Shown piece after piece: positions 5,174 through 59,410 of a DNA stretch of 64,000 bases. Position numbers and translations under genes: made by a program. The stretch lies in the NCBI RefSeq assembly GCF_003033925.1, contig NZ_CP028365.1, positions 1,178,001 to 1,242,000 on the forward strand, written 5' to 3'. Positions within the stretch are counted from its first letter, which is position 1. Every line of letters begins with the position of its first letter. The notes under the pieces were generated by a model. It was not told the origin of the DNA and did not search any database. It saw nothing but the letters and a program-made list of their open reading frames with translations. This stretch comes from Tannerella serpentiformis. GTDB taxonomy: Bacteria; Bacteroidota; Bacteroidia; Bacteroidales; Tannerellaceae.

Positions 5174-5509
5174 GTTTGCAATGCAGATAGGCCCGCTCCC
5201 GCGATGAGCACACCCGATTGCAATGCAGATAGGTATGCTCCTGTGAGGAGCACCGCCGATTGCAACGTCAATAGTCATGTTCCCGCGAGGAGCATACCCG
5301 ATTGCAACGTCAATAGCCATGCTCCCGTAAGAAGCACCACCGATTACAGCGTCAACAGCCATGCTCCCGCGAGGAGCACTCCAGATTGCAACGTCAATAG
5401 CCGTGTTACCGTGAGGGACGCTACCGATTGCAACGTCAATAGCCATGTCTCTGTGAGGAGCATCTCCGATTGCAGCGTTTCTGATTATACTTCCTCAAGA
5501 TACGCGATT
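5174..5509. repeat. 42-nt tandem array, 8 units
   Basis: Eight units recur every 42 nt, with anchors at 5174, 5216, 5258, 5300, 5342, 5384, 5426 and 5468. Units contain GATTGCAACGTCAATAG and a hairpin-forming segment ATGCTCCCGTGAGGAGCAT (7-bp arms, 5-nt loop). The array fills the gap between the convergent nuclease (+) and deacetylase-like (-) genes. Because 42 is a multiple of 3, frames stay open on both strands, but codon content is just the repeat, so no protein is called. Bases 5510-5673 hold nothing recognisable. Confidence 0.95.
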
Positions 5510-5673
5510 ATTTAGGCATGAAATAGTGCCCATTCAAGCAGATTGACGCTTATTTTTTCATGTAATGGGGATCCATCGAAACAAATGGCCACTTTTTTCG
5601 CCCGCATATCTTTAGGATCATATAGCAGACTCACTCTCTACGTTTTCAATAGAAACGAATGCGCACGAATAAA

Positions 5674-5705
5674 GCGCAGAGACGAATAAAAAATCGTCCC
5701 TGCGC
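5674..5705. terminator. hairpin between convergent genes
   Basis: GCGCAGAGACGA and TCGTCCCTGCGC form a 12-nt stem with one mismatch around an A-rich 8-nt loop. It lies 46 nt beyond the stop of the minus-strand deacetylase-like gene, where a terminator is expected. The T-tract is weak on both sides, so the call is moderate. Confidence 0.5.
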
Positions 5706-5750
5706 TATGAAGAATAGCCGAAAAACAAATGATTACCCCTACCCCCTCGG

Positions 5751-7094
5751 TTACCTTCTCAGCGATTCATAGGCGCTATCGGCCAGCAACACCAACGTAC
5801 GGCTGTAGAGGTTTTTGAGGTAACCCGCGCGGGGTGTGGCGGAGGTGTTGTGCCAGAGGAGGGTCAGGCTGCCGTGGGCGCGACGCGTCTCGTCGGCCAA
5901 TTCGATGATGAGTCGGAGGGCATCACGCTCGTCGAGGTGCATGTAGCGCTCCGCGGAGAGGGTGCACTCCATGACGGTCAGCGGATGGAGAGTGAGCCTG
6001 TGCGAAAGGTGGCGCGTGGCAGGGTAAATGCAGCGGACGGGGCGCGCGGTGCCGAGGCGGAAACCGACTTGATCGGCGTATCCCATCGTGTAGTCGTCCG
6101 TGATGCCGGCGTCCTCGAGGGCCTCCATGTGCTGCGGCTCGCGGAGGCCGAGAAAGTGGTGGCGATTCAAGGTGACAGGCCTGTCGATGGCATTTTCCAA
6201 GGCCGCCTTCTCTCGGGCGATCAGCTCAGGCCGGCGACCCGCCTCGTGGCTGGCATGCAGGCCGATCTCAACGTCGTAATCGCGGCAGAGTTGGAGCAGG
6301 CGGCCGATGTCGCGCCCGTGAAGGTCGTAGTGCGGGCGATCCTCCACGTCGTTTCCACCGGCGCGAAAGAAGAGGATCGGCCGACAGTGGTCAGCGCCGA
6401 AGATGGTGCGCATGCGGTCGTCCTGCTGCAGCATCCAGGGAAAAGTGTAGTAAGGGTCATCCTCCAGTCGGCCGAAATGACCGCGGAAAGCGCTGATGAA
6501 ATGGCCCTGGAGCAGCTCGCGCGCCATGCTGCGCAGGGTGCGGCAGAAGAAGGGTGCGTCAACGTCGTGCGTGAGGTTGATCTGGCTGAATGTGGCATGC
6601 GGTTCGGGGGCTACGCAGCCGACCTCGCGCAGCAGCCGACGCAGCAAGCGGCCATAATCGTCGACGAGCGGGCGGCGGAGGAAGCCGGCGCGATGGGCGA
6701 TCGACTCCCTGCCCGGGAAACGGCCGTGGATATCGCGCACATCCGGCCGCATCCACTCCTCGTACCGGCTGAGCAGAAAGTAAGCGCCGGCGATGACGTC
6801 GGCGTGCAAGACGATGGTATGTCCGCGCCGCGTGATCTCCGGCCGGCCAAAGAGGATCGGCAGGTCGCCATCTACCGCCTCCCCTGCGCCGCCCTTGAGC
6901 ATCGGTAAGGGGAGCATGGGCATCGAGCGGGCCGTGCCGTAGACGTCCTCATCGAAGAAGCCCGAGGGGAGGATGACGAGGCGGAAAGTGTGAAAGGCTT
7001 GCGCGTCGGCGGTATAGCCCACAGCGCGGCAGGCATCCTCGGGGACGCTGTCGCCCAGCAAGAAGCGGAGGATGTAGGCTTGTATCTCGTTCAT
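5751..7094 (-). CDS. polysaccharide deacetylase-like family protein
   Basis: The 447-residue protein resembles the Bacteroidetes polysaccharide deacetylase-type family found with surface-polysaccharide genes. A metal-site THDVD motif lies mid-protein (INLTHDVDAP), followed by RPILFFRAGGND, EIGLHASHEAG (an H-x-x-H pair) and a terminal LLWHN. The first 150 residues are a poorly conserved extra domain. The substrate is unknown, probably an N-acetylated sugar in an envelope glycan. It starts one base after the stop of the upstream FemAB/GNAT-like gene, so both belong to one transcript with recA. There is no signal peptide, so action at the cytoplasmic side is likely. Confidence 0.7.
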   Translation of the reverse strand: MNEIQAYILRFLLGDSVPEDACRAVGYTADAQAFHTFRLVILPSGFFDEDVYGTARSMPMLPLPMLKGGAGEAVDGDLPILFGRPEITRRGHTIVLHADVIAGAYFLLSRYEEWMRPDVRDIHGRFPGRESIAHRAGFLRRPLVDDYGRLLRRLLREVGCVAPEPHATFSQINLTHDVDAPFFCRTLRSMARELLQGHFISAFRGHFGRLEDDPYYTFPWMLQQDDRMRTIFGADHCRPILFFRAGGNDVEDRPHYDLHGRDIGRLLQLCRDYDVEIGLHASHEAGRRPELIAREKAALENAIDRPVTLNRHHFLGLREPQHMEALEDAGITDDYTMGYADQVGFRLGTARPVRCIYPATRHLSHRLTLHPLTVMECTLSAERYMHLDERDALRLIIELADETRRAHGSLTLLWHNTSATPRAGYLKNLYSRTLVLLADSAYESLRR

Positions 7095-10955: not shown

Positions 10956-11235
10956 CGCAAAATTGCGAGTGAACGATATAGTACAACGACGGCAACTCAC
11001 AACTTTGTGAGTTAACGACATTGTACAACGATGGCAACTCACAACTTTGTGAGTTAACGATATAGTACAACGACGGCAACTCACAATTTTGTGAGTTAAC
11101 GATGTAGTACAGCGACGATAACTCACAATTTTTCATCTTAATTATACAGCACAGCGACGTTAACTTACAATTTTGCGGCTTAATCATACAGCACAGCGAC
11201 GTTAACTTACAATTTTGCGGCTTAATCATATAGTA
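10956..11235. repeat. 42-nt tandem array, about 6.5 units
   Basis: Units repeat every 42 nt (anchors 10994, 11036, 11078, 11120). The first copies contain the near-perfect palindrome AACTCACAACTTTGTGAGTT with 9-bp arms. The last two copies drift together to ACTTACAATTTTGCGGCTT. The array lies between the upstream promoter of the carboxynorspermidine synthase gene and the 3' end of the symporter gene. Frames remain open across it, but the peptide is only the repeat. Confidence 0.95.
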
Positions 11236-11239
11236 CGAT

Positions 11240-17353: not shown

Positions 17354-17775
17354 CTCCGCGTTACTTTATCGCAGTGCAGTTGCATGGCGACAAATTACCG
17401 CAGTAAATAATCGCAAAGCAGTTGCACTGTAATCAAGTAACGAGTTCGATGATTACAAATCACTCGCATTGTGATAAATTACCGCGGTAAATAATCGCAA
17501 ATCATTTGCATTGTAATCAAGTAACGAGTTCGATAATTACAAATCACTTGCATTATGACAAATTACCGCGGTAAATAATCGCAAAGCAGTTGCATTGCAA
17601 TAAATTACTCAAGTAAGTAGTCGAAAAGCAATCGCATTGTAATAAATTACTCGGGTAAGTAGTCGAAAAGCAATTGCATTGCAATGAATGACCGCAGTAA
17701 GTAGTCTTAAAGCAGTTGATTTCCGATAAATTACCGCAGTACTTTTTCTCTATGCACTTGATTTGAGGCTAAACA
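17354..17775. repeat. 42-nt tandem array, about 10 units
   Basis: Anchors recur exactly every 42 nt at 17396, 17438, 17480, 17522, 17564, 17606, 17648, 17690 and 17732, with partial units at both ends. Two unit types alternate early on: one with the palindrome TTACCGCGGTAA, the other with AAGTAACGAGTTCGAT. Later units contain AAATTACTC(A/G)(A/G)GTAAGTAG. The array lies between the divergent serC and rarA promoters. Its sequence is related to the array at 43 kb (GCAATTGCATTGCAATAAAT type). Confidence 0.95.
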
Positions 17776-23280: not shown

Positions 23281-24212
23281 CTCTCGTTTCTGTTTGCCCT
23301 ATGGACGCAAGGGATGGACGCAGGTTACAATCGGCGCCTCCATGCCTGCGCCGGGCCAAACCTCGCCGCCCTCCGCAGCCACCCCGACCAGTGCGATGCC
23401 AATCAGACCTCGTTTGCCTATCCGACACGCCTGCAAGCTCCGAAAAGTGCCTCGTTTATCGATCCGACACCGATGTCAGCTCCAAAAAGTGCCTCGTTTC
23501 CCCGGCCGACACGCTTGCAAGCCCTAAAAAGAGCCGTTTGTGTGAATCGCTTTATAGAAACGGATCATTTATACATCGTACATGTAAATCACTCCATAGA
23601 ATCGCATCAAATAAACCGCCTGTATTTCTGTCGCACTATTCAAGCGAATCGAATAAACACAGTGTATTTAACTCAGCTCTTAGAATCGGGTTAAATATAC
23701 ACTGTGAATATAAGCCGCTTTATATAAGCGACAGGTCTATACGGCGTATATCTGAACCGATTTGTTCACTTGATTCTGATATACGATGAATATGAGATCC
23801 GATTTATACAGTGGATGAATCTATACGACGTATATTTGGTCCGATTTGATGGTGCGGATCCGATATACTACGTATATAAGCACGAACTGATAGATGGCTT
23901 TTCCAAAAACGCCTCTTTTTGGGGCGTGCAGGCGTGTTGGCTGGGTAAACGGGGCACTTTTCGGAACTAACAGCGGTGTCGGATAGGTAAACGAGGCACT
24001 TTTTGGAGCTGACATCGGTGTCGGGTAGGGAAACGAGGCACTTTTCGGGGCTGACACCGGCGTCGGATAGGTAAACGGGGCCTGATAGGCGTCGCACTGG
24101 TCGGGGTGGCTGCGGAGGCTGGTGCGGTTTGGCCCGTCGCAGGCGTGGGAGTGCGCCGATTGTAACCTGCGGCACGCCTTTGCGTCATATCCTTGCACGA
24201 CAAAAACGAGAC
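23281..24212. repeat. about 930-bp palindromic element built of 42-nt units
   Basis: The left arm (23281-23545) and right arm (23893-24212) are inverted copies; for example CAGGTTACAATCGGCGC at the left recurs inverted as GCGCCGATTGTAACCTG near 24155-24171. In the left arm CCTCGTTT recurs at 23408, 23450 and 23492. In the right arm TAAACG-type anchors recur at 23946, 23988, 24030 and 24072. The AT-rich centre has no obvious homology to the arms, yet its TGTATTT/CGTATAT motifs recur at 23621, 23663, 23705, 23745, 23787, 23829 and 23871, again 42 nt apart with one 40. No protein gene is supported. The element separates the divergent DUF6249-like and sigma-factor genes. Confidence 0.9.
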
Positions 24213-24773: not shown

Positions 24774-24776
24774 CCC

Positions 24777-28243: not shown

Positions 28244-28604
28244 TGCAACGGTCATAGTGCTTTTGGAAATGCTTGCGGGACTCCCGCAAACGCCAAAAGG
28301 TTTTCCGAGAGACTTGCGGAACTTCCGCAAACGCCAAAAAGTACTCCGAGGCACTTGCGGGACTCCCGCAAGCACCAAAAAGTTTCTCGAGAGACTTGCG
28401 GGACTCCCGCAAACGCCAAAAAGTTTTCCGAGGCACTTGCGGGACTCCCGCAAACACCAAAAAGTTTCTCGAGAGACTTGCGGGACTCCCGCAAACGCCG
28501 AAAAGTTTTCCGAGGCACTTGCGGGACTCCCGCAAACGCCAAAAAGTTTCTCGAGAGACTTGCGGGACTCCCGCAAGCATTTCCAAAAGCACTTTGGCCG
28601 TTGC
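28244..28604. repeat. TIR-bounded 41-nt palindromic array
   Basis: Seven to eight units recur at 41 nt (for example 28272 and 28313). Each has the palindrome TTGCGGGACTCCCGCAA (8-bp arms) followed by AAAAAGTTT, with TCTCGAGA in alternate units. The outer ends are inverted: AGTGCTTTTGGAAATGCTTG at 28256 is matched exactly by the complement ending at 28593 (25 bp perfect, 28256-28280 and 28569-28593), and similarity extends to GCAACGG at both edges. It sits between lepB paralogue and the histidine kinase. All frames are open over short runs, but nothing suggests coding. Confidence 0.95.
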
Positions 28605-28675
28605 ATCCCTCCCTGTCGCAGCAATATTCACCCCCTTCCTCCGTTGGATTGAGGTGTTTTTAGAACGACCAAGTC

Positions 28676-35176: not shown

Positions 35177-35458
35177 TCGAAATGTGAAGCGATTGTTAAC
35201 GTCCATCTTAGATGGAACACTGAAACGTGGCGCGTTTTGCACCTCCACCTTAGATGGAACACCGAAACGCGGCGCGTTTTGCACTTCCACCTTAGATGGA
35301 ACACCGAAACGCGGCGCGTTTTGCACTTCCACCTTAGATGGAACACCGAAACGCGGCGCGTTTGGCACTTCCATCTTAGATGGAACACCGAAACGCGGCG
35401 CGTTTTATACTTCCACCTTAGATGGACGTTTGAAACGTGATGCGTTTTTATGTACCCG
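35177..35458. repeat. 42-nt array, first block (7 units)
   Basis: GAAACG-type anchors lie at 35179 (degenerate), 35222, 35264, 35306, 35348, 35390 and 35432. Each unit has two dyads: AAACGCGGCGCGTTT and CCATCTTAGATGG (or CCACCTTAGATGG). The edge units are degenerate (AAACGTGATGCGTTT). The array begins right after the ATPase 2 stop codon. Open frames of over 300 codons across this region are a result of the 42-nt period and are not considered genes. Confidence 0.95.
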
Positions 35459-35589
35459 GGTAGGGGCGTATTGCATACGCCCCACCAAACGTTCCCGCAA
35501 GGGGACGAGATCTGCAAAAGGCGACCAAACGCACGACTTTTTGTCCCCTACGGGGCCATTCGGTGGGGCGTATGCAATACGCCCCTACC
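35459..35589. repeat. 131-bp element with 28-bp perfect terminal inverted repeats
   Basis: The arms 35459-35486 and 35562-35589 are exact inverted copies; each contains GGGGCGTATTGCATACGCCCC, itself almost palindromic. The 75-bp interior includes CGTTCCCGCAAGGGGACG and CCCCTACGGGG hairpins. It separates the two halves of the 42-nt array, yet the array register continues across it: GAAACG anchors at 35432 and 35600 are 168 nt (4 x 42) apart. No open frame of note. Confidence 0.9.
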
Positions 35590-36010
35590 ATGCAACCTCG
35601 AAACGTGATGCGTTTTGCACTTCCTACCTAGTAGCAACACTGAAACGTGGCGCGTTTTGCACTTCCTACCTAGTAGCAACACTGAAACGCGGCGCGTTTT
35701 GCACTTCCTACCTAGTAGCAAGACCGAAACGCGGCGCGTTTTGCACTTCCTACCTAGTAGCAACACCGAAACGTGGCGCGTTTTGCACTTCCTACCTAGT
35801 AGCAACACTGAAACGCGGCGCGTTTTGCACTTCCTACCTAGTAGCAACACTGAAACGCGGCGCGTTTTGCACTTCCTACCTAGTAGCAACACTGAAACGC
35901 GGCGCGTTTTGCACTTCCTACCTAGTAGCAACACTGAAACGTGGCGCGTTTTGTACTTCCTACTTAGTAGGGAGTTTGAAACGTAATGCGTTTTGCCTCT
36001 TCTATTCTTC
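35590..36010. repeat. 42-nt array, second block (10 units)
   Basis: GAAACG anchors recur at 35600, 35642, 35684, 35726, 35768, 35810, 35852, 35894, 35936 and 35978, exactly 42 nt apart. The dyad AAACGCGGCGCGTTT is the same as in the first block, but the second dyad is CTACCTAGTAG instead of CCATCTTAGATGG; both arms have changed together. First and last units are degenerate. Confidence 0.95.
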
Positions 36011-38486: not shown

Positions 38487-38494
38487 TACCTTTG
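38487..38494 (+). promoter_or_regulatory. -7 element TACCTTTG upstream of HigBA
   Basis: TACCTTTG lies 23 nt upstream of the ATG at 38518 and about 200 nt upstream of the toxin start. It should drive the short proline-rich frame and higBA. Confidence 0.6.
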
Positions 38495-38517
38495 CAGGGA
38501 CAGAATACGACACGATC

Positions 38518-38694: not shown

Positions 38695-39035
38695 AGAGGA
38701 GACAGATACAGATCTATGGCGATTATTTCACTGACTTCTTCGAAAAACAGAACGAACAAGTCAGATTGAAGATATTGAAGGTGCTCGAGATTATCGAGAC
38801 CATAGATCGTATCCCTGAAACTTATCTAAAGCACCTGCGTAACGGACTGTTTGAGATACGTATTCAACTTGGAAGCAGCATTTTCCGGATCTTTTGCTTC
38901 TTTGACAATGGCAGACTGATCATCCTCTTGGGTGGGTTCCAAAAGAAAACGCAAAAGACCCCCGCAAAAGAGCTGGAGCGCGCACTACGACTCATGAAGA
39001 TCTATCATAACGAAAAGGAGAACAAACAAGAATGA
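38691..39035 (+). CDS. higB: RelE/ParE-superfamily toxin (HigB/Gp49-like)
   Basis: The 114-residue protein has the Gp49/HigB pattern: YGDYFTDFFEKQNEQVRLKI, then YLKHLRNGLFEIRIQLGSSIFRIFCFFDNGRLIILLGGFQKKTQKTP, with Arg and Lys residues expected for RNase action. It is followed with a 4-nt overlap by an HTH antitoxin, so toxin precedes antitoxin, the typical higBA order. It likely cleaves ribosome-bound mRNA. AT-rich codon use compared with neighbours suggests acquisition by transfer (inference). Confidence 0.9.
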   Translation: MKRRQIQIYGDYFTDFFEKQNEQVRLKILKVLEIIETIDRIPETYLKHLRNGLFEIRIQLGSSIFRIFCFFDNGRLIILLGGFQKKTQKTPAKELERALRLMKIYHNEKENKQE

Positions 39036-39319
39036 AGTTGCAAACACTAGACGAATTGAAAGATAGGTTCTACGGCCCGAAAGGTTCCGAGAAACGTGAT
39101 CAATTAGATCGTGAATTGGACGTTTTGAGGATAGGAATCCTGATTCGGAACGCCCGCAAGGAGTCTAAATTGACTCAAGCCGAGCTGGCTGAGCGCATTG
39201 GTAAGAAGCGAGCCTTCATTTCCCGTGTGGAAAACGATGGTTCTAACCTTACCATTGCCACTCTGCTGGATATTGTAGAAAAAGGATTGGGCAAAAAGCT
39301 CTCTTTCGATATTCAGTAA
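39032..39319 (+). CDS. higA: XRE-family antitoxin (HigA-like)
   Basis: The 95-residue protein has a helix-turn-helix of the Cro/CI type: LIRNARKESKLTQAELAERIG, then RAFISRVENDGSNLTIATLL. It overlaps higB by 4 nt. The first 30 residues (LDELKDRFYGPKGSEKRDQ) are probably the toxin-binding part. It should repress the operon. The cobD-like gene begins 20 nt downstream, so read-through into cobalamin genes is possible. Confidence 0.92.
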   Translation: MKLQTLDELKDRFYGPKGSEKRDQLDRELDVLRIGILIRNARKESKLTQAELAERIGKKRAFISRVENDGSNLTIATLLDIVEKGLGKKLSFDIQ

Positions 39320-39339
39320 CCCCCTCACCTCCTCCGATC

Positions 39340-40362
39340 ATGCTCCACGGCCACGGCGACGACCTACACACTTGCGGACAGACCATCCGCGCCAACTTCA
39401 GTTCGAACATCTTTGCTACAACCGACCTATCGGCGTTGCAGCAACACCTCTCGGCACACCTTGCCGTCATCGGCCACTACCCCGAACCCGAACCCTATGC
39501 GTTAGAGAGTCTCTGGGCCGACTCCCTCGGGCTACTCCCCGCAGAAATATGCGTCACCAACGGCGCCACCGAGGCCATCTATCTCACCGCACAGGCCTTC
39601 CGCGGTGCAACGAGCTACATCCGACAGCCGACCTTCAGCGAATACGCCGACGCCTGCCGCATGCACGGCCATAGCGTCCGCTCCCTCTTCACCGACGACG
39701 CCATCGATGACACGCCCGACCTCGTCTGGCTCTGCAATCCGAACAACCCGACGGGTGAGGTCCGCGACCGACACACATTGCTCCGACTCATCGACGCTCA
39801 CCCCTCCGTCTGCTTCGTCATCGACGAGAGCTATGGTGCTTTCACCCGCCAACCGTTGCCAACCGCAGCAGAAATGGCCGAACGGAGCAACGTGATCGTC
39901 ATCCGGTCGGCCACGAAACGTCACGCAGTCCCCGGTCTACGGCTTGGCTGCCTCACTGCAGCGGCCGAGATGATCGATCGAATCCGCGTGCAACGCATGC
40001 CGTGGTCGGTGAATGCGCTGGCCGTAGAAGCGGGGGAGTTCTTTCTCCGTGAGAATCCCCCTCTGCAACCGCCGATCGATGATCTTTTGGCCGAGCGAGA
40101 CCGACTCATGGCCGCGCTGGCGGATCTCAAGATCGCCGACCTCTGGCCGACAGAAACGCACTTCTTCCTCGTCCGACTGCGTATGGGTACAGCCGCGGCG
40201 CTGAAGCATTATCTCATACAGGAGCACGGCTTGCTCATCCGTGATGCGTCCAACTTCGAAGGCCTCGATGCCGCCTTCGTGCGCATCGCCACACAAAGTC
40301 GTGCCGATAACGATCTACTGATACAAACATTATCCCTATGGAAGCATACTTACTCTTCTTAA
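39340..40362 (+). CDS. cobD: threonine-phosphate decarboxylase-like aminotransferase (CobD)
   Basis: The 340-residue fold-type I PLP protein starts MLHGHGDDLHTCGQ, the HG-D start of CobD-type enzymes, with FSSNI, HYPEPEP, VTNGATEAIYL and the PLP lysine in RSATKRHAVPGLRLG. It is related to histidinol-phosphate aminotransferase. Because it overlaps cbiB by 25 nt and cobQ is adjacent, L-threonine-O-3-phosphate decarboxylation to the aminopropanol moiety of cobalamin is the likely reaction. The protein is slightly shorter than Salmonella CobD. Confidence 0.85.
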   Translation: MLHGHGDDLHTCGQTIRANFSSNIFATTDLSALQQHLSAHLAVIGHYPEPEPYALESLWADSLGLLPAEICVTNGATEAIYLTAQAFRGATSYIRQPTFSEYADACRMHGHSVRSLFTDDAIDDTPDLVWLCNPNNPTGEVRDRHTLLRLIDAHPSVCFVIDESYGAFTRQPLPTAAEMAERSNVIVIRSATKRHAVPGLRLGCLTAAAEMIDRIRVQRMPWSVNALAVEAGEFFLRENPPLQPPIDDLLAERDRLMAALADLKIADLWPTETHFFLVRLRMGTAAALKHYLIQEHGLLIRDASNFEGLDAAFVRIATQSRADNDLLIQTLSLWKHTYSS

Positions 40363-41288
40363 TCCCCCTCATTGGCGGATGGTTATTAGATAAACTATTG
40401 GGCGATCCGCGCTGGATGCCGCATCCCATCGTCCTCTTTGGGCGACTGATTGCGTGGGGCGACACATGGCTGAACCGCGGAAGACATCGCACGTTGAAAG
40501 GCGGTCTACTGGCAGTCGTGTTAATCGTCGGAACGTTCGCTGCCACATGGGCGCTAATCGTTGCCGGCTATCGCTACGGCGGACGCTGGGACATTGTGGT
40601 GCCGACGCTGCTTGTTTGGCTCGGTTTAGCGGGGCGGACATTGCTGCACGAGGTGCGCGAAGTGTTTTACGCTTGCAGCCGATCGACGAACGAAGGTCGG
40701 AGGCAGGTTGCCCGCATCGTAGGACGCGACACGAGTCAGCTCTCGGCCCGTGAAGTGCGTGCAGCTGCGCTCGAAACATTGGCCGAGAACCTCAGCGACG
40801 GTGTGGTTGCGCCCCTTTTTTGGTACGCCTTCCTCGGTGTGCCCGGCATGATGGCTTATAAGATGATCAACACGCTCGACTCGATGATTGGCTATCGCAA
40901 CGCACGCTATCTCCGCTTCGGACGTATCGCTGCACGCATCGACGACGTGGCCAACTACATCCCCGCCCGATTGACTGCCTACCTCATGCTGGCCGTCAGC
41001 GGTCGGCGCTCACTCATTCCTTTTGTGCGACGCTATGGGCGTTGCCACAAGAGTCCGAACTCGGGCTATCCGGAGGCTGCACTGGCGGGCATTCTCGATT
41101 GCCGATTCGGCGGCACGCACACCTACTTCGGTCAACCTGTGGAAAAGCCTTACATCGGCACCAACCCCCGACCGCTGACGATGGACGACTATCGCAACTC
41201 GGCCTTCGTAGCCCAACGCACCGAGGCGATGGCCGTCATGCTGACTGCGATTGCCGGCATCGTCTACCTCTTCTTCATCATCCCGTAG
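40338..41288 (+). CDS. cbiB: adenosylcobinamide-phosphate synthase
   Basis: The 316-residue membrane protein has several hydrophobic helices and the CbiB signature GWLLDKLLGDPRWMPHPIVLFG, AALETLAENLSDGVVAPLFW and KSPNSGYPEAALAGIL. It joins the aminopropanol phosphate to cobyric acid. It overlaps cobD at its start by 25 nt, and its 3' end overlaps the convergent cobQ gene by 25 nt. No cobalamin riboswitch is visible upstream of either transcript. Confidence 0.95.
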   Translation: MEAYLLFLIPLIGGWLLDKLLGDPRWMPHPIVLFGRLIAWGDTWLNRGRHRTLKGGLLAVVLIVGTFAATWALIVAGYRYGGRWDIVVPTLLVWLGLAGRTLLHEVREVFYACSRSTNEGRRQVARIVGRDTSQLSAREVRAAALETLAENLSDGVVAPLFWYAFLGVPGMMAYKMINTLDSMIGYRNARYLRFGRIAARIDDVANYIPARLTAYLMLAVSGRRSLIPFVRRYGRCHKSPNSGYPEAALAGILDCRFGGTHTYFGQPVEKPYIGTNPRPLTMDDYRNSAFVAQRTEAMAVMLTAIAGIVYLFFIIP

Positions 41289-42760
41289 ATCTGCGCCATG
41301 TCCACGTGACGGCGCACATGATCGGCCAGGCGGTCGTATTGCTCCTCTTTGAAGGCGGCGTAATCGAACGTGCGACGCGTATCGATGCGGCCGATAACGG
41401 GGCGCAGCAGGCAATCGATGGCCGGAGCGTTGTCGAGTATGCCGTGGATATATGAGCCCATGCAACGCTCGCCCACGCGCCAGCCCGTATCGACGCCATC
41501 ACCCTCAGTCAGCGGAAGCACATCCGATGCACCAGCCTCGAGGCGCGTTTCCCCCATATGAATCTCATAGCCGCGACACATACGCGGATCATTGACCATG
41601 CGGAAGCTGACCTGCCGCGTGGTCTTTTCTTTTGTTAGGCGGGTGGTGACGGGCAGGAGCCCGAGGCCGGGCAGACGCTCGATGTCGCCCTCCACGTGAT
41701 CCGGGTCACAGACTTCGCGCCCCATCATTTGGTAGCCGCCGCAGATGCCCATCACCACGGCGCCGTCTCGGTAGGCACGCTGGATGGCTCCGGCCGCACC
41801 GTTGCGACGCAGATCAGAGAGGTCGTCGAGCGTGTTCTTCGAGCCGGGCAGCAGGATGATGTCCGCCTTGCACAGCTCCTCGGTGTTGTTGGTGTAAAAA
41901 AGGTGCACCCGCTCGTCGCGCTCCAGGACGTCGAAGTCCGTGAAGTTGCTCATGTGGCGCAGCAGCACAACGGCTACGTTGATGCGCCCCTCGACGGCCT
42001 CGCGCTGCTTGGTGCGGAGCGTGACGCTGTCCTCCTCCTCAATATATATATCGGTGAAGTGCGGCACGACGCCAACGACAGGCACACCACAAAGCTCCTC
42101 GATCATCCGACGACCACTGCCGAAGAGGCTCATATCGCCGCGGAACTTGTTGATGAGTACGCCGCGGATACGCTGTCGATCCTCCGGAGTTTGGAGCATG
42201 ATGGAGCCATAGACGGAGGCAAAAACGCCGCCCCGATCGATGTCGGCCACGAGCAAGACGGAGGCGTCAGCATAACGCGCCATGGGGAGGTTGACGAGGT
42301 CTACATCGCGAAGATTCAGCTCAGAGATGCTGCCTGCACCCTCCATGACGATGGGGTTGTAACGGGCAGCGAGTCGGTCGAAAGCGGCATGCACCTCTCG
42401 CTCCAATTCGGCGCGGCCTTCGCGTCGAAAGTAGGCCGAGGCGTGTTGGTTGCCCGTCGGACGACCGTGCAGGACGACCTGCGAGGTGCTGTCGCCCGAA
42501 GGCTTGAGCAGGAGCGGATTCATGTCCGTATGGCAGGGCACGCCAGCGGCTTCGGCTTGCACCGCCTGCGCGCGGCCCAGCTCGAGACCGTCGGCGGTGA
42601 CGAAGGAGTTCAGCGCCATGTTTTGCGCCTTGAAGGGTGCGGGATGGTAGCCATCCTGGAGGAAGATGCGACAGAGTGCGGCGGCGATCACGCTCTTGCC
42701 GACGTCGCTGCCCGTACCCGCGAGCATGATGGGACGGAGGGGGGAATGCATTGGAATCAT
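41264..42760 (-). CDS. cobQ: cobyric acid synthase
   Basis: The 498-residue enzyme amidates adenosylcobyrinic acid diamide to cobyric acid. The N-terminal ATP-binding domain begins PIMLAGTGSDVGKSVIAAAL; the C-terminal glutamine amidotransferase domain has the nucleophile in GICGGYQMMG and the His in GSYIHGILDN. Start 42760 (MIPMHSPL) or 42751 both fit; the frame is open to 42811 but that would run toward the -7 box. Read toward cbiB, it is convergent with it and their 3' ends overlap. Confidence 0.95.
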   Translation of the reverse strand: MIPMHSPLRPIMLAGTGSDVGKSVIAAALCRIFLQDGYHPAPFKAQNMALNSFVTADGLELGRAQAVQAEAAGVPCHTDMNPLLLKPSGDSTSQVVLHGRPTGNQHASAYFRREGRAELEREVHAAFDRLAARYNPIVMEGAGSISELNLRDVDLVNLPMARYADASVLLVADIDRGGVFASVYGSIMLQTPEDRQRIRGVLINKFRGDMSLFGSGRRMIEELCGVPVVGVVPHFTDIYIEEEDSVTLRTKQREAVEGRINVAVVLLRHMSNFTDFDVLERDERVHLFYTNNTEELCKADIILLPGSKNTLDDLSDLRRNGAAGAIQRAYRDGAVVMGICGGYQMMGREVCDPDHVEGDIERLPGLGLLPVTTRLTKEKTTRQVSFRMVNDPRMCRGYEIHMGETRLEAGASDVLPLTEGDGVDTGWRVGERCMGSYIHGILDNAPAIDCLLRPVIGRIDTRRTFDYAAFKEEQYDRLADHVRRHVDMAQIYGMMKKR

Positions 42761-42785
42761 GTGTAGTGAAGCGTTTTGATGCGGG

Positions 42786-42793
42786 CAAAGGTA
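42786..42793 (-). promoter_or_regulatory. -7 element TACCTTTG for cobQ
   Basis: On the minus strand TACCTTTG lies 25 nt upstream of the cobQ start at 42760. Bases 42794-42974 beyond it contain no gene or repeat I can name. Confidence 0.65.
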
Positions 42794-42974
42794 GAGAACC
42801 GCCGTGCCCACACCATCGGGCTCCGATTATCTCCGCCCCATTCTCCGGTAAAGAAAGTCTTCGGTACATCATCCCACATCCTATGATTTACGATCAACCA
42901 GCAGGTTGATTTATCCTTTCTACATTGCAGAAAGAAAAACAACGGCAATGATTTACTCCATTTCATATGACGAA

Positions 42975-43330
42975 AGACAAATTACTTCGATGTTTTATTG
43001 CAATGCAAATGATCTGCGACAACTTAATAGAGTAATTTATTACCATGCAAGTGATTTGCGACAAATGACCTAAGTAATCTATTGCCATGCAGATGATTTG
43101 CAACAAATAACTCAAGTAATTTATTGCCATACAAGTGATTTGCAATAAATGATCCGAGTAATTTATTACAAAGCAATTGCCTTGCAATAAATGATCCAAG
43201 TAATTTATTATCATGCGAATGATTTGCGATAAATGACTAAAGTAATTTATTACCATGCAAACGATTTACAGCAAATGACTCGAGTAATTCATTACCATGC
43301 AAGTGATTTGTGATAAATGACCGCAGACGA
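42975..43330. repeat. 42-nt tandem array, about 8 units
   Basis: AGTAAT anchors recur every 42 nt at 43031, 43073, 43115, 43157, 43199, 43241 and 43283. Units contain GCAAATGATTTGC-type dyads (6-bp arms) and AAATGACTCGAGTAATT. The array resembles the 17.4-kb array in composition and motifs. It lies between the divergent cobQ and rpsA promoters. Bases 43331-43495 are unassigned. Confidence 0.95.
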
Positions 43331-43495
43331 AATTCTCCGGAAAAATGTTTCCGAATCTTGACTCAGTTGGGCGTCGAGCCGAAAACGTGGCGAGAGGCTC
43401 TCGCGGAGGCGATGAGGCGAAAACGGACTGCAGACGAACTTACAAACGCCCAGACCGTCACCTTGCACCCGACTTCCATCGTTCGAAAAGGCCTC

Positions 43496-43503
43496 TATCT
43501 TTG
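43496..43503 (+). promoter_or_regulatory. -7 element TATCTTTG for rpsA
   Basis: TATCTTTG lies 80 nt upstream of the rpsA ATG, giving a leader of about 75 nt. That leader could carry autogenous control by S1, but no specific structure was recognised. Confidence 0.65.
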
Positions 43504-43583
43504 CAGCCTCAATTTTTGAGATTCAGAGAGTAATAACAAGAATGGTCTAACTTTTTAAGCAAACAGAGTACTCACTTTTTAAG

Positions 43584-45407
43584 ATGGAAAATTTGAAAGA
43601 CATTGTCCCCGATGAGAGCTTCAACTGGGATTCGTATGAAAAAGGCGATTCAACACCGAACGTCAATCGGGACGAACTCGTCAAGACGTACGACGAGACA
43701 TTGGGAGCCATGAAGGACAAGGAAGTAGTGATGGGCACCGTCACAGCGATGAACAAGCGCGAAGTGGTGGTCAACATCGGCTACAAATCGGACGGCATCG
43801 TGCCCATGTCGGAATTCCGCTACAACCCCGATCTCAAGGTCGGCGATGAGGTGGAAGTCTACGTTGAGAATCAAGAAGACAGGAAGGGTCAGCTGATCCT
43901 CTCGCACAAGAAGGCCCGCTCGGCCCGCTCTTGGGAACGCATCACGGACGCTTTCGAGCGCGACGAGGTGCTCAAGGGCTATGTGCGCGGACGGACAAAG
44001 GGCGGCATGATCGTAGACATCTACGGCATCGACACCTTCCTTCCGGGCTCGCAGATCGATGTGAAGCCGATCCGCGATTACGATGTGTTCGTCGGCAAAA
44101 CGATGGAGTTCAAGGTAGTCAAGATCAACAAGGAATACCGCAACGTGGTGGTTTCGCACAAGGCCCTCATCGAGGCCGAGCTGGAACAGCAGAAGCGCGA
44201 GATCATCTCTCGACTGGAGAAGGGCCAAGTGCTCGAGGGTACGGTCAAGAACATCACCTCGTACGGCGTCTTCGTCGACCTGGGCGGTGTGGACGGTCTG
44301 GTGCACATCACGGATCTGTCTTGGGGACGCGTATCGCACCCGGACGAGGTGGTGCACATCGATCAGAAGCTCAACGTCGTGATCCTCGACTTCGACGACG
44401 AGAAGAAGCGCATTGCCCTCGGCCTGAAGCAGCTTACGCCGCACCCGTGGGATGCCCTCGACCCGAACCTCAAGGTGGGCGACCATGTGAAGGGCAAAGT
44501 GGTGGTGATGGCCGACTATGGCGCATTCCTGGAGATCGCTCCGGGCGTCGAGGGACTGATCCACGTCTCGGAGATGAGCTGGACGCAACACCTGCGCAGC
44601 GCTCAAGACTTCATGAAGGTAGGCGACGAGGTGGAAGCAGTCGTCCTGACGCTCGACCGCGAGGACCGCAAGATGTCACTCGGTGTGAAGCAGCTCCGCG
44701 AAGATCCGTGGGAGAAGATCGAGATCAAGTATCCGGTCGGATCGAAGCACACGGCTCGCGTACGCAACTTCACCAACTTCGGTGTCTTTGTGGAGATCGA
44801 AGAGGGCGTAGACGGATTGATCCACATCTCCGACCTCTCCTGGACGAAGAAGATCAAGCACCCGAGCGAGTTCACACAGATCGGCGCCAACATCGATGTA
44901 CAGGTGCTCGAGATCGACAAGGAGAACCGTCGCCTCAGCCTCGGCCACAAGCAGCTGGAGGAGAACCCGTGGGATGTGTTCGAGACGATCTTCACCGTCG
45001 GCTCCGTGCATGACGGCACGATCATCGAAATGCTGGACAAGGGCGCCGTGGTATCGCTGCCCTACGGTGTGGAAGGCTTCGCTACCCCGCGCCATCTGAC
45101 CAAGCAGGACGGATCGCCGGCTAAGCTCGACGAGAAGCTGCCCTTCAAGGTGATCGAGTTCAACAAGGATGCGAAGCGAATCATCCTCTCGCACAGCCGC
45201 ACCTTCGAGGACGAGCAGCGCAGCGCACGTGCAGCAGAGCGTCGTGCCCGTAACAACAGCAACAGTGGCGGCGGCAACAACGGTGGCGGTGGTCACCATG
45301 CTCCGGCACCCGAGATGGCAAACGCACCCGTGATCGAAAAGACCACACTGGGCGACATCGAGGAGCTGGCTGCACTGAAAGAGAAGCTGGAGAACGGCGA
45401 GGCATAA
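43584..45407 (+). CDS. rpsA: 30S ribosomal protein S1
   Basis: The 607-residue protein contains successive S1 RNA-binding domains, seen as recurring G-V/T-V-x-x-I segments: VVMGTVTAMNKREVVVNIGYKSDG (domain 1, given in part), VLKGYVRGRTKGGMIVDIYG, VLEGTVKNITSYGVFVDLGG, VKGKVVVMADYGAFLEIAPG, ARVRNFTNFGVFVEIEEG and VHDGTIIEMLDKGAVVSLPYG. That is six domains, ending with a Gly/Asn-rich tail (NNSNSGGGNNGGGGHH). It delivers mRNA to the ribosome. The low-complexity Gly/Asn tail is typical of Bacteroidetes S1. A terminator follows. Confidence 0.97.
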   Translation: MENLKDIVPDESFNWDSYEKGDSTPNVNRDELVKTYDETLGAMKDKEVVMGTVTAMNKREVVVNIGYKSDGIVPMSEFRYNPDLKVGDEVEVYVENQEDRKGQLILSHKKARSARSWERITDAFERDEVLKGYVRGRTKGGMIVDIYGIDTFLPGSQIDVKPIRDYDVFVGKTMEFKVVKINKEYRNVVVSHKALIEAELEQQKREIISRLEKGQVLEGTVKNITSYGVFVDLGGVDGLVHITDLSWGRVSHPDEVVHIDQKLNVVILDFDDEKKRIALGLKQLTPHPWDALDPNLKVGDHVKGKVVVMADYGAFLEIAPGVEGLIHVSEMSWTQHLRSAQDFMKVGDEVEAVVLTLDREDRKMSLGVKQLREDPWEKIEIKYPVGSKHTARVRNFTNFGVFVEIEEGVDGLIHISDLSWTKKIKHPSEFTQIGANIDVQVLEIDKENRRLSLGHKQLEENPWDVFETIFTVGSVHDGTIIEMLDKGAVVSLPYGVEGFATPRHLTKQDGSPAKLDEKLPFKVIEFNKDAKRIILSHSRTFEDEQRSARAAERRARNNSNSGGGNNGGGGHHAPAPEMANAPVIEKTTLGDIEELAALKEKLENGEA

Positions 45408-45452
45408 TCCGACACGGATAGGCCCCCTCGGCCTTCACTCATAGCACACGAA

Positions 45453-45495
45453 AAAGAGGGACGCGGATCAATCAGATCTGCGCCCCTCTTTCATT
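45453..45495 (+). terminator. rho-independent terminator of rpsA
   Basis: AAAGAGGGACGCGGAT and ATCTGCGCCCCTCTTT form a long stem with two mismatched positions and a 7-nt loop, followed by TCATTTTCC. It lies 46 nt after the rpsA stop codon. A reversed fragment of dispersed module B (GGGAAGGTTGGCCCGGTA) follows at 45519-45536. Confidence 0.8.
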
Positions 45496-45541
45496 TTCCC
45501 CTCACCGAGAGCGGGAAGGTTGGCCCGGTAAGTACAGGCGA

Positions 45542-46435
45542 TCAATCCGTACCGCGGAGCAGGAAGTCGGACACGACAGCGATGGCCTCGTGCGCGACAT
45601 CGGTGTCGGCGAAGAGTCCGCAGTGGCAGCCGAGGTCGACAACACGCGACATCTCCATGAACGGCACCACACGCCGCGCATGCTTCACCACCTCATCGCC
45701 CGGGAAGAGGCAGTCCGACTTGCAGGCCACGATGCCGACCGGTGCACGAAACTTATCCAGGCTTTTCTTCTTCACCTCGCGCCACTCCTCGGGCTCGGGT
45801 CGGAGGTAGAGATAAATGAGGCGTGCCATCTCAAGCAAATCGGGAGCTTCAAAGTTTAGGGCTGGCTCTAAGGCGCGTTGCACAGCCTGATCCGATAGCT
45901 GCAGACGGTCCAGATCGGGCGTTCGGGCGCTGAGCAGACGATCGGTGCGTGCCAGCGACGTGGAGGCGAACCCAGCGGGCTGCACCAACATGAGTCGGCT
46001 GACGCTCAGCACGGCCGTCTCACAGAGTTGCAGCGCAATGCGTGCCCCCTGCGACCAAGCCAGAACGGTGCACCCACGTAGTCCCAGCGCCTCCATCACT
46101 TGCAGCGCCCATCGCCCATACTCCCCCTTCGAGGCGCTCAATCGGCGCCCCAGACTGAAACCGACAGCCCCGGGCACATCGGGCACAAGAAGGCGCACCC
46201 GCTCCAGATCCAGCCCCTCGATGAAAGGGCGCATAGCCAGCGGGCCGGTGAGGTATTCGCCATGAAAACAAAGGATGGGCGTAGCGTCGTGTCGCCCATA
46301 AGTCACAACGTGCGTATCGCCCAGCTCCGTAGCCACCATGCATTCGGAGAGAGGCACGTCGAGCTCGGCCAGGTGTCGGCGGTATAAATCGTGTATAAGT
46401 CGGCGTCCGCCCGCCGACCGATAGATGTCATCCAT
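45542..46435 (-). CDS. alpha/beta hydrolase
   Basis: The 297-residue protein has an alpha/beta-hydrolase layout: TPILCFHGEYLTG (HG oxyanion segment), the nucleophile elbow in VLAWSQGARIALQLCE (G/A-x-S-x-G, with A-W-S-Q-G) and a C-terminal catalytic His region (GCHCGLFADTD). The acid may be in IVACKSDCLFPGDE. The first 60 residues (DIYRSAGGRRLIHDLYRRHLA) form an extra N-terminal part. Substrate is unknown. It has its own -7 box at 46496-46503 and no operon partner. Confidence 0.85.
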   Translation of the reverse strand: MDDIYRSAGGRRLIHDLYRRHLAELDVPLSECMVATELGDTHVVTYGRHDATPILCFHGEYLTGPLAMRPFIEGLDLERVRLLVPDVPGAVGFSLGRRLSASKGEYGRWALQVMEALGLRGCTVLAWSQGARIALQLCETAVLSVSRLMLVQPAGFASTSLARTDRLLSARTPDLDRLQLSDQAVQRALEPALNFEAPDLLEMARLIYLYLRPEPEEWREVKKKSLDKFRAPVGIVACKSDCLFPGDEVVKHARRVVPFMEMSRVVDLGCHCGLFADTDVAHEAIAVVSDFLLRGTD

Positions 46436-46495
46436 AATCAGTGAAAAATGAGAAACTAAAAACGGGCTGTCACCCCGCGTGGGGAGTCAGCGGCG

Positions 46496-46503
46496 CAAAT
46501 ATA
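46496..46503 (-). promoter_or_regulatory. -7 element TATATTTG for the hydrolase
   Basis: On the minus strand TATATTTG lies 60 nt upstream of the hydrolase start. The 21-nt array begins about 60 nt further upstream. Confidence 0.6.
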
Positions 46504-46564
46504 GACGCAGTGGGGAGCTCCGGTGGGGTGAAGTTTTTCGCCTCCGGCTGCATTGGGGGCCTGA

Positions 46565-46770
46565 GAGGTAAAATACCTGTCCGGAGACGTCTAGAACCTC
46601 TCGGGAGAGGTCCGGAACCTCTCGCGAGACATTTTTTACCTCTCACGACACGTCTAGAACCTCTCGGGAGAGGTCCGCAACCTCTCGGGAGACGCTTTTT
46701 ACCTCTCACGACACATAAAAAACCTCTCGCGAGAGGTTCTAGACGTGTCGCAAGAGGTTCAGAGCGTCTC
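46565..46770. repeat. 21-nt palindromic array with 16-bp inverted ends
   Basis: ACCTCTC-headed units recur every 21 nt. The core palindrome ACCTCTCGCGAGAGGT is complete in the last full unit and degenerate (ACCTCTCACGACACGT, ACCTCTCGGGAGACG) in others. ACGTCTAGAACCTCTC at 46587-46602 is exactly inverted at 46731-46746. The period is half of the 42 nt found elsewhere. It fills the gap between the hydrolase promoter and the ABC-F gene stop codon. Confidence 0.9.
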
Positions 46771-46807
46771 AGGCGGTTCTGGGCCTGAAAAACAGTGGTT
46801 TTACGCC

Positions 46808-48556
<1,749 letters not shown>

Positions 48557-52795: not shown

Positions 52796-52853
52796 GAAGC
52801 GGCCCCGGATACGGACCTGGTACCCGTCCAATTAGGCCAGCATCCCTGACGCC

Positions 52854-53172
52854 TTGATTTTCTTTTGCTCCTTTTCCCCACATCAAAGCAAGAAAAGGAG
52901 TGTCCTATCGCCACATTCCCCCCGCCAGATCCCTTTTGGAGGCGTTTCGCCGAGTAATTTCCTCCAACCGATCTCTTTTGAAGGCGTTTCTCCGAGTAAT
53001 TTCCTCCAACCGATCTCTTTTGAAGGAATTTCTCCGAGTAAATTCCTCCAACCGATCTCTTTTGAAGGAATTTCTCCGAGTAATTTCCTCCAACCGATCT
53101 CTTTTGGAGGAATTTCCTTGAGTAATTTTCACCGTTGGCATGTCGTCGGTGAAAATTACTCAAAGAAACGCC
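52854..53172. repeat. module A plus TIR-bounded 42-nt array
   Basis: Module A (52854-52896, 43 nt) is followed by five units with CGAGTAATT-type anchors at 52951, 52993, 53035, 53077 and 53119. Units contain the inverted pair CCTCCAA...TTGGAGG and AGGAATTT...AAATTCCT. The right end inverts the left: GGAGGCGTTTC near 52937 returns as GAAACGCCTCC near 53164. A 15-bp hairpin, GAGTAATTTTCACCG with CGGTGAAAATTACTC (53120-53134, 53147-53161), closes the array. Confidence 0.9.
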
Positions 53173-58212: not shown

Positions 58213-58218
58213 ACCAAG

Positions 58219-58259
58219 TAGACTTCGCAGCGTAGTGCAGATGCGCTGCTCTGCGGAGT
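58219..58259 (+). terminator. hairpin between DUF2723 and deacetylase genes
   Basis: GACTTCGCAGCG pairs with the downstream CGCTGCTCTGCGGAGTC region, allowing bulges, in the 55-nt gap. No T-tract follows. It may attenuate rather than end transcription. Confidence 0.4.
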
Positions 58260-58267
58260 CGTAGGGT

Positions 58268-58918
58268 ATGTTCATCGAGCGCCCCCCTTGGTTTTACAGG
58301 AAGCTCTTCCCCGGGTCAGTCTGGCGACTGCCCGCGGAAGAGCCCTGTGTTTATATCACCTTCGACGACGGCCCCAACGCTGCCACCACCCCCCGCCTGC
58401 TCCGCGTGCTGGACCAGCTCGCCGTCCCCGCCACCTTCTTCTGCGTCGGCGACAACGTCCGCCGTTACCCCGAAGCCTACCGCGCCATCCTCGCCTCCGG
58501 ACACACCGTCGGCAATCACACCCATCACCACATCCGCGGCTTCCGTCTGCCCGCCTCAGACTACATGGCCGACGTCCGCCTGGCCGCCAAGCTGATCGAC
58601 AGCCCCCTCTTCCGCCCCCCGCACGGTCGACTCACCCCCGCTCAACAGGCAGCCCTCCGCGCGGCTGGCTACCGACTCATCATGTTCGACGTCGTCACCC
58701 GCGACTACAGCCCCCGCCTCACCCCCGACGACGTCTTCCATAACGCCACCCATTACGCCCGCAACGGCTCCCTCATCGTCTTCCACGACTCCCCCAAGGC
58801 CGCCCCGCGGATGTTCGACGCCCTGCCCCGCGTCGTCACGTGGCTCCGCACCGCTGGATACACCTTTCGGCGCCTCGAAGCTCCCCCGCCGTTTTCACCG
58901 CGCACCCAAGAACTGTGA
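58268..58918 (+). CDS. polysaccharide deacetylase (NodB-type)
   Basis: The 216-residue protein has the NodB motifs: motif 1 YITFDDGPNAATT (catalytic base and metal Asp), motif 2 VGNHTHHHIRG (H-x-x-x-H metal ligands), motif 3 FRPPHGRLTP, motif 4 MFDVVTRDYSP and motif 5 IVFHDSPKA. It should deacetylate a GlcNAc-type sugar. No signal peptide. The last residues (FSPRTQEL) and the stop codon lie inside the first unit of the 59-kb repeat array, so the native C-terminus may have been replaced. Confidence 0.92.
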   Translation: MFIERPPWFYRKLFPGSVWRLPAEEPCVYITFDDGPNAATTPRLLRVLDQLAVPATFFCVGDNVRRYPEAYRAILASGHTVGNHTHHHIRGFRLPASDYMADVRLAAKLIDSPLFRPPHGRLTPAQQAALRAAGYRLIMFDVVTRDYSPRLTPDDVFHNATHYARNGSLIVFHDSPKAAPRMFDALPRVVTWLRTAGYTFRRLEAPPPFSPRTQEL

Positions 58919-59410
58919 AAAACGGGGCGCCGTTTTCACCGCGCACCCAAGAACTGTGAAAAACAGCCCGCCGTTTTCACCGCGCACCCAAGAACTGTAA
59001 AAAACGGGCCGCCGTTTTCACCGCGCAGGCTGTCGGCATGAAAAAGGCGGCCCGTTTTAGACCGCGCACCCCGTCGCGGTGTAAAAGGCGGCCCGTTTTG
59101 GACCGCGCACCCCGTAGCCATGCAAAAGGCGGCCCGTTTTGGACCGCGCACCCCGTAGCCATGCAAAAGGCGGTCCGTTTTGGGCCCCGACACCCCGTAG
59201 CCATGAAAAAGGCAGCCCGTTTTGGACCCCAACACCCCGTAGCCATGCAAAAGGCGGCACGTTATGGACCCCGACACCCCGTAGCCATGAAAAAGGCGGC
59301 CCGTTTTGGGCCCCGACACCCCGTAGCCATACAAAAGGCGGCCCGTTTTGGGCCCCAACACCCCGTAGCCATACAAAAGGCGGCACGTTTTTGACCCCGA
59401 CACCCCGTAG
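58891..59410. repeat. 41/42-nt tandem array, 13 units, overlapping a gene 3' end
   Basis: GTTTT-type anchors are at 58891, 58932, 58973, 59014 (41 nt apart), 59054, 59095, 59136, 59177 (40-41) and 59219, 59261, 59303, 59345, 59387 (42 apart). The first four units contain CACCGCGCACCCAAGAACTG; later ones contain CCCCGTAGCCATG and AAGGCGGCCCGTTTTGG. The step from 41 to 42 coincides with CGCAC becoming CGACAC. The array starts inside the deacetylase coding end. Bases 59411-59525 hold no gene. Confidence 0.95.

What the first reader, a model, noticed from the sequence alone, without database searches (positions are those of the whole stretch)
5174..59410. A common 42-nt ruler underlies unrelated intergenic repeats at a dozen loci
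Arrays at about 5.2, 11.0, 17.4, 23.3-24.2, 35.2-36.0, 43.1, 52.9 and 59.2 kb have different sequences but the same 42-nt period, measured from anchor positions (for example nine successive anchors at 17396-17732 and ten at 35600-35978, all exactly 42 apart). The 28.3-kb array and the first part of the 59-kb array use 41, and the 46.6-kb array uses 21. They occur in divergent, convergent and tandem gaps and stop short of the promoters or genes. A shared period without shared sequence implies a common generating mechanism or a physical constraint: 42 bp is four helical turns, 21 is two. From memory, Porphyromonas gingivalis carries modular MITEs with short tandem bricks (BrickBuilt), which may be relatives.
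Basis: partly seen in the sequence, partly recalled or inferred. Interest (0 to 1): 0.92.

Follow-up and report, generated by a model that had tools for sequence, protein, structure and literature searches.

The report
Hairpin repeats with quantised unit length
The gaps between genes in this bacterium are full of short tandem repeats that differ in sequence but mostly share a unit of 41-42 letters (21-23 in two relatives); the units carry DNA hairpins, some sit inside small jumping elements, and what fixes the length is an open, testable question.

Summary
In a 464-kb sample, 82 of 93 intergenic tandem arrays have a period of 20-24 or 40-44 nt, mostly 42 and 41; 58 arrays of 40-44 nt form 30-42 sequence groups, depending on the clustering. 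Three other genomes show the same two bands with different modes: 41 in G041, 23 and 21 in G004, 21 in G010; a fourth, G014, has 4 of 7. Units carry hairpins, and two dyads often lie exactly half a period apart (20.5, 21.0 or 21.5 nt). The 28.2-kb array belongs to an IS982-related MITE family whose end matches the first 12 nt of the P. gingivalis MITE239 end. Twelve of 23 such sites examined carry arrays of 40-42 nt; the same end bounds 23-nt arrays in G004. So the period follows neither sequence nor transposon end. Strict helical phasing is disfavoured: 20, 21 and 23, or 41 and 42, coexist in one genome. Best reading: minisatellites of close-packed DNA hairpins, one or two per unit, grown by local slippage and partly spread in MITEs, like P. 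gingivalis BrickBuilt and PgRS in kind. What sets the length is unknown.

The parts
5167..5478 (.). array, period 42, convergent gap; unit carries hairpin GCTCCCGTGAGGAGC
10963..11236 (.). array, period 42, tandem gap
17376..17741 (.). array, period 42, divergent gap; two dyads per unit 21.0 apart; same family as 42994-43321 and arrays in L010, L015, L020
23304..24186 (.). composite repeat; as a whole an imperfect palindrome (self minus-strand match of 932 columns, 66%); 42-nt arrays in both arms and a degenerate 42-nt array in the middle
28244..28605 (+). array, period 41, with inverted flanks; belongs by unit and inner flanks to the IS982-related MITE family (no outer end found here); unit = 17-nt hairpin + 24-nt linker
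35202..35970 (.). two 42-nt arrays (35202-35426, 35610-35970) separated by a dispersed hairpin module (GGTAGGGGCGTATTGCATACGCCCC); related arrays in L026 11955-12981
42994..43321 (.). array, period 42, upstream of rpsA (43584), divergent gap
46575..46737 (.). array, period 21 (63 higher order), palindromic unit
52928..53128 (.). array, period 42, followed by an inverted partial unit
58886..59027 (.). array, period 41, starts in the last 33 nt of ORF 58268-58918; the 42-nt array follows it
59037..59416 (.). array, period 42

Best explanation
The arrays are intergenic minisatellites made of close-packed DNA hairpins. One hairpin with its spacer takes about 20-23 nt; a unit holds one (periods 20-24) or two (periods 40-44), and in part of the two-hairpin families the two dyads lie exactly half a period apart. 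Arrays grow and turn over locally by slippage or unequal exchange, so sequence drifts quickly while unit size persists. Some travel inside IS982-related MITEs or other leader-tail elements. Shown: the two-band period distribution in four genomes, their different modes, the hairpins and half-period dyads, residence of some arrays in MITEs, local unit similarity and decayed edges. Inferred: that hairpin size fixes the unit length, that amplification goes through folded-back single strands, and that the arrays are mostly tolerated passengers rather than regulators.
For: Two bands: 82/93 intergenic arrays in this genome's sample, 64/69 in G041, 35/36 in G004, 27/29 in G010; 1, 1, 0 and 0 arrays at 25-39 nt. 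Best stem per unit above shuffled units in all nine sets tested, e.g. 5.96 v 4.13 (G000, 40-44), 5.23 v 3.57 (G004, 20-24). Dyad pairs at exactly p/2: profile 68 v null 1 for p=41, 124 v null 1 for p=42; within 1 nt of p/2 in 18 of 58 arrays v 8.5% in the null. In the MITE family the first stem is 94% paired and 6 of its 7 pairs change on both sides; over both stems the covariation score is 0.421 v 0.151 shuffled and at most 0.202 slid. Adjacent units 0.806 identical, units seven apart 0.705; edge units 0.749 to consensus, inner units 0.868. MITE residence: 12 of 23 end sites examined plus L016 and L023. Same end with 23-nt arrays in G004 and a 21-nt array in G010.
Against: The second stem is weak in general (D2 3.90 v 3.16 in the null), so 'two hairpins per unit' is clear only in part of the families; reverse-complement symmetry of the unit passes p<0.05 in 25 of 58 arrays. 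In one search one of five measures (further pair types, 26) is reached by 155 of 500 shuffles, and the second stem is only 57% paired. Within arrays, changes in stems are not clearly compensatory (G000 40-44: 21 double Watson-Crick changes and 238 mismatches; slid control 11 and 249). Hairpins alone do not obviously forbid 30-nt units. Most arrays show no detectable terminal inverted repeat (12 of 54 in G000 score 11 or more).
Confidence: 0.55

Rival explanations
1. Common descent only: the arrays descend from a few ancestral 41-nt units; sequence diverged but length was inherited.
For: In the MITE family, units with quite different hairpins (GGG/CCC, AAC/GTT, ACC/GGT, GCA/TGC) keep the 41-nt frame and part of the linker; L228 holds two hairpin types in one array. 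Pairwise unit similarity has an excess over shuffles (10.8% v 3.1% of equal-length pairs at 50% identity or more, true family members included).
Against: Thirty to 42 groups among 58 arrays; the same MITE end carries 23-nt arrays in G004 and a 21-nt array in G010; two bands recur in four genomes, and 21-22 is the commonest class in 79 other Bacteroidales loci.
Confidence: 0.2
2. Helical ruler: dyads must face the same side of the helix (every one or two turns), for a nucleoid or structural protein.
For: 21 and 42 are near two and four turns, and a dyad lattice with whole-turn spacing would allow 21 and 42 but not 31 or 52, as observed.
Against: 41 and 42 coexist in G000 (18 and 31 families) and 41 leads in G041 (19 v 10); 20, 21 and 23 coexist in G004; dyad spacing follows p/2 for p = 41, 42 and one array of 43. 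I saw no common motif, but ran no motif search.
Confidence: 0.1
3. Functional RNA or transcription signals: arrays are structured leaders, trailers or two-way terminators.
For: Folding energies of arrays (consensus unit repeated four times) beat dinucleotide-shuffled ones (mean z -1.57; 27 of 58 below -1.65).
Against: No Rfam match at gathering scores in the window. Terminator-like sites in 28000-47999 are at the chance level (22 found, 20.3 expected), and only one (46719-46740) overlaps an array. Arrays occur in all gap types (20 ++, 18 --, 11 -+, 7 +-, 3 undetermined; bias not tested statistically). G-U pairs are rare in the covarying stem (3 of 191 paired cells), which points to DNA.
Confidence: 0.07

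Closest known systems
BrickBuilt (P. gingivalis minisatellite inside a MITE; PMC4596501)
   Same: Intergenic, tandem units without spacers, leader and tail, long predicted stem loops; 23-nt unit as in many G004 arrays.
   Different: 19 copies of one element there; here dozens of sequence groups. Its end GAGACCTTTGCA(AAA) gave 2 hits at up to 2 mismatches in the 464-kb sample, 1 of them within an array.
MITE464/PgRS, MITE239 and MITE700 of P. gingivalis (as described in PMC4596501)
   Same: PgRS has a 41-nt tandem repeat; the first 12 nt of the MITE239 left end (ACGTGAGTTCGA) and the MITE700 right end (TCGAACTCACGT) equal the end core found here.
   Different: PgRS ends differ; the paper reports no mini- or microsatellite inside the 239 and 700 types and matches their ends to ISPg3, listed as IS5, whereas the remnants here match the IS982 profile.
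IS982-derived MITE of Cardinium (PMC9769881)
   Same: Small non-autonomous element with IS982 ends in a Bacteroidota symbiont.
   Different: About 240 bp; the word 'tandem' does not occur in the text.
REP/BIME palindromic repeats
   Same: Palindromic intergenic units in arrays (recalled); one Y1_Tnp match is in the genome.
   Different: Unit sequence differs between families; a link of arrays to the Y1 gene was not examined.
Prokaryote satellites surveyed in PMC6749651
   Same: Tandem repeats of 10-200 nt, some transposed (Leptospira, Methanocella).
   Different: In its Table 1 the densest genome has 89 per Mb and the densest bacterial replicon 23 per Mb; here 190 per Mb with four or more copies (64 of those 76 intergenic), by a different detector. 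It reports mostly multiples of three among long repeats.

Membership tests
IS982-related MITE (28.2-kb array family) | terminal inverted repeats shared with an IS | tested here: met
   61 end sites at <=1 mismatch in the genome, reversed-pattern control 1; IS982 profile hits at 9 sites (2 of 14 hits over the cut-off), 8 sites within 1.3 kb of such an end. In the window no good copy of the end was found, so the window array is placed by unit and inner flanks.
IS982-related MITE (28.2-kb array family) | target site duplication | tested here: met
   Of 12 distinct two-ended elements, 5 have exact 6-7-nt duplications (L222, L225, L231, L233, L234), 2 have 6 of 7 (L224, L242), 5 have none; one of the 12 (L238) is the IS remnant.
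BrickBuilt | terminal repeat GAGACCTTTGCA around the array | tested here: not met
   2 hits of the 15-nt form at <=2 mismatches in 464 kb, 1 within an array
BrickBuilt | 23-nt unit of the published sequence | not tested
   the unit sequence was not compared; periods in this genome are mostly 41-42
MITE in general, for all 40-43-nt arrays | inverted repeats at both ends of the array | tested here: not met
   12 of 54 arrays score >=11 v 1.1% in mismatched-flank controls (G000), 10 of 31 v 6.6% (G041); some of these are internal palindromes
CRISPR | constant repeats separated by unique spacers | tested here: not met
   whole units repeat head to tail
Rho-independent terminator arrays | stem followed by T run in each unit | tested here: not met
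   region 28000-47999 only
REP/BIME with RAYT | tagged palindrome next to a RAYT gene | not tested
   one Y1_Tnp match in the genome; tag and neighbourhood not examined

The most novel reading that the evidence does not exclude
A host-encoded process in this clade makes or maintains tandem arrays from almost any intergenic hairpin, with a unit length measured in steps of one hairpin (about 21 nt), and different species run it in one-step or two-step mode. The arrays would be a genome-wide readout of that length-setting machinery, independent of sequence and of the transposon that carries them.
Probability: 0.25. Interest if true: 0.88.

Novelty: new variant of a known kind. Interest (0 to 1): 0.72.

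Why it matters
Bacterial minisatellites are usually treated as one-off oddities. Here dozens of arrays with different sequences in one genome obey a length rule, the rule differs between related genomes, and the same mobile element end is found with the local rule. That makes the origin of repeat unit length, an old question for minisatellites, directly testable in bacteria.

Tried and rejected
Indel depletion as a sign of selected spacing: inconclusive. With one scoring scheme arrays had as many indels per substitution as dispersed repeats (0.123 v 0.102); with matched scoring fewer (0.051 v 0.103). Detection favours arrays without indels, so I draw no conclusion.

Nascent two-copy duplications: too few to judge (6 intergenic in this genome's sample, 3 of them at 41-42, of which 2 lie at or within 60 nt of the start of a fetched stretch).

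Symmetric array ends (arrays cut at the same phase of the hairpin): at chance (8 of 37 v 6.2 expected).

42 as a direct dimer of 21: no residual similarity at half period (mean 0.26).

Within-array compensatory changes: not convincing.

A conserved array upstream of rpsA: none of the 19 same-genus loci shows a 40-43-nt array there; their flanks are at most 1.5 kb.

A control from other orders was asked for and could not be fetched, so I cannot say whether the 21-22 peak is special to Bacteroidales.
Full report
CHECK. The arrays are present as described. Lag 42 dominates the window, lag 41 comes through two arrays, and 21/63 appears at 46.6 kb. The window lies at 1178001-1242000 of a single-contig genome of 3,013,500 bases. 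Its rpsA matches Bacteroidales best (one search kept the best 80 of 594 relatives); several of the named loci are Tannerella or Tannerellaceae MAGs. That such MAGs come from termite guts is recalled, not taken from a call.

GENOME-WIDE. I took 20 stretches of 20 kb: 18 evenly spaced, two placed to include hits of the 17.4-kb family. With the window this is 464 kb. Ungapped autocorrelation finds 77 intergenic arrays, 35 at 42 and 21 at 41. A repeat finder that tolerates indels finds 93 intergenic arrays of at least 2.8 copies: 69 at 40-44, 13 at 20-24, 6 at 80-88, 5 others. Genes were called with a simple codon-usage script of my own, so gene ends are approximate. For the unit analyses I used 58 arrays with periods 40-44; two of them (L018 4581, L019 14449) lie mostly in called ORFs. 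They form 42 groups at 62% unit identity (which compares only units of equal length and so splits related 41- and 42-nt arrays) or 30 groups by blastn with flanks (where one group of 16 is chained partly by flanking repeats).

OTHER GENOMES. The same count gives 64 of 69 in the two bands for G041 (the genome of L053, named Tannerellaceae bacterium Pc512_bin25), 35 of 36 for G004, 27 of 29 for G010, and 4 of 7 for G014. The modes differ: 41 in G041 (32 arrays, 19 families), 23 and 21 in G004 (16 and 8 arrays), 21 in G010 (17 arrays). Other same-genus genomes were sampled thinly and show few arrays. G041, G004 and part of the G010 stretches came from contigs chosen for a repeat family or a MITE end, so their array counts are biased toward those; family counts less so. 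In 79 other Bacteroidales loci (1.39 Mb), 39 of 71 intergenic arrays are at 20-24, with 22 the commonest length, and none at 40-44. So a 21-22-nt class is widespread in these loci, and the 41-42 class stands out in G000 and G041. Arrays with four or more copies number 76 in the 400 kb of stretches (190 per Mb, 64 of them intergenic) against 51 in the control loci (37 per Mb, 19 intergenic). Fisher tests of band membership against the control give p from 1.6e-4 to 2.7e-7.

ANATOMY. The best stem exceeds shuffled units in each of nine sets, the control loci included. In 40-44-nt units, pairs of local dyads peak at half a period, and the spacing follows the period: 20.5 for 41, 21.0 for 42, 21.5 for one of two 43-nt arrays. 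The windows of two dyads that far apart do not overlap, so this is not built in. Thirteen of 58 arrays are exact, which by the grouping is nine groups of 42 (one of the nine is the mostly coding L018 4581); 18 of 58 are within 1 nt (null 8.5%). Reverse-complement symmetry of the unit passes p<0.05 in 25 of 58. The 23.3-24.2-kb composite is as a whole an imperfect palindrome of about 880 bp.

MOBILE ELEMENTS. Dispersed repeats beside arrays led to an end sequence, AACGTGAGTTCGA. It occurs 61 times at up to one mismatch in the genome, against 1 for the reversed pattern. I examined 30 of the 61 hits, which are 23 distinct sites: 12 carry an array on the inner side of the end (three of 40 nt, eight of 41, one of 42), the others none there. 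L016 and L023 add two more. Elements without a detected array exist (L010, L011, L021); L011 holds two hairpins 41 nt apart. The 28.2-kb window array shares the inner flanks and unit of this family, but no end was found beside it. Nine sites match the IS982 transposase profile, eight within 1.3 kb of such an end; the two strongest, the only ones over the cut-off, have stops inside. The 12-nt core equals the first 12 nt of the MITE239 left end in PMC4596501 (sections 5 and 8 and the first part of section 7 read). In G004, 5 of 13 fetched sites with this end carry 23-nt arrays inside the element, with at least two clearly different unit sequences; in a sixth the array lies outside the end. One G010 element holds a 21-nt array. 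In G041 a separate element carries 41-nt arrays: of 8 copies aligned (of 16 hits), 7 share the tail and 6 the leader. For one other family in this genome I looked at 5 loci: three have unrelated flanks and two share the region downstream of tRNA-Ala genes. In one search some further pairs match beyond the array (L014 with L025; the 35-kb pair with L026).

COVARIATION. I aligned 29 of the 67 units, from 11 loci with 41-nt units; L221, L224, L227, L231 and L023, with 40- or 42-nt units, were left out. The structure was drawn by me from these sequences. The first stem is 94% paired with double changes in six of seven pairs; the second is 57% paired. The covariation score is 0.421 against 0.151 shuffled and at most 0.202 when slid; the number of further pair types is not exceptional (155 of 500 shuffles reach it). 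Relatedness is not removed by the shuffles. G-U pairs are rare (3 of 191 paired cells of stem one), which suits a DNA structure or templated change better than RNA. Within arrays the same idea shows no clear compensation, so stems seem to change between elements rather than base by base within an array.

DYNAMICS. Unit identity falls with distance along the array, and edge units are decayed, as expected for slippage or unequal exchange.

HOW IT WORKS. My best account is a satellite of close-packed hairpins with one or two hairpins per unit. That would explain the two bands, the nearly empty range between them, the half-period dyads and the independence from sequence. It does not by itself explain why one genome uses two-hairpin units and another one-hairpin units, nor why the lengths are so exact; there a host factor or simple inheritance must enter. 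Helical phasing alone fits poorly because lengths that drift out of phase with each other coexist in one genome. Terminators and RNA elements are not supported.

LITERATURE. Eight searches listed P. gingivalis minisatellite MITEs (PMC4596501), an IS982 MITE in Cardinium (PMC9769881, passages seen), a P. gingivalis resequencing paper (PMC5771137, passages seen) and a survey of prokaryote satellites (PMC6749651, parts 1 and 2 of 5 read). No listed title or abstract start describes a shared period over many unrelated arrays; for most listed papers I saw no more than that, and only an open-access library was searched.

Noticed in passing
window 23304-24186: The composite repeat in this divergent gap is as a whole an imperfect palindrome of about 880 bp, with a degenerate 42-nt array in its middle.
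   Followed up: partly
window 36007-36087, 52830-52897, 32044-32124; L020 8086-8165: A dispersed repeat of about 80 nt (GTACCCGGC..CTTGATTTTCTTTTGCTTCTTTTCTTGCATCAAGGCAAGAAAAGAAG), depth up to 23 in the 464-kb sample, sometimes beside arrays.
   Followed up: partly
window 35461-35491; L011 1084-1110; L017 1516-1645: A second dispersed hairpin repeat (GGTAGGGGCGTATTGCATACGCCCCACC), which also separates the two arrays at 35 kb.
   Followed up: partly
L020 19511-19975, L022 1890-2438: Two tRNA-Ala genes with different anticodons share their downstream region followed by a 41-nt array of the same family.
   Followed up: partly
L238 489-1512; L251, L252: IS982-family transposase remnants; the two best matches have stop codons inside, so the partner of the MITEs may be inactive in this genome.
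   Followed up: partly
L084 9721-9971, L087 9766-9966, L086 927-1109, L133 1224-1456: Repeats just before the aligned part of ribosomal protein S1 in several Bacteroidales look by eye like coding repeats of a variable N-terminal extension.
   Followed up: no
79 Bacteroidales loci (L029-L108 without L053): Intergenic tandem repeats in these loci peak at 21-22 nt.
   Followed up: partly
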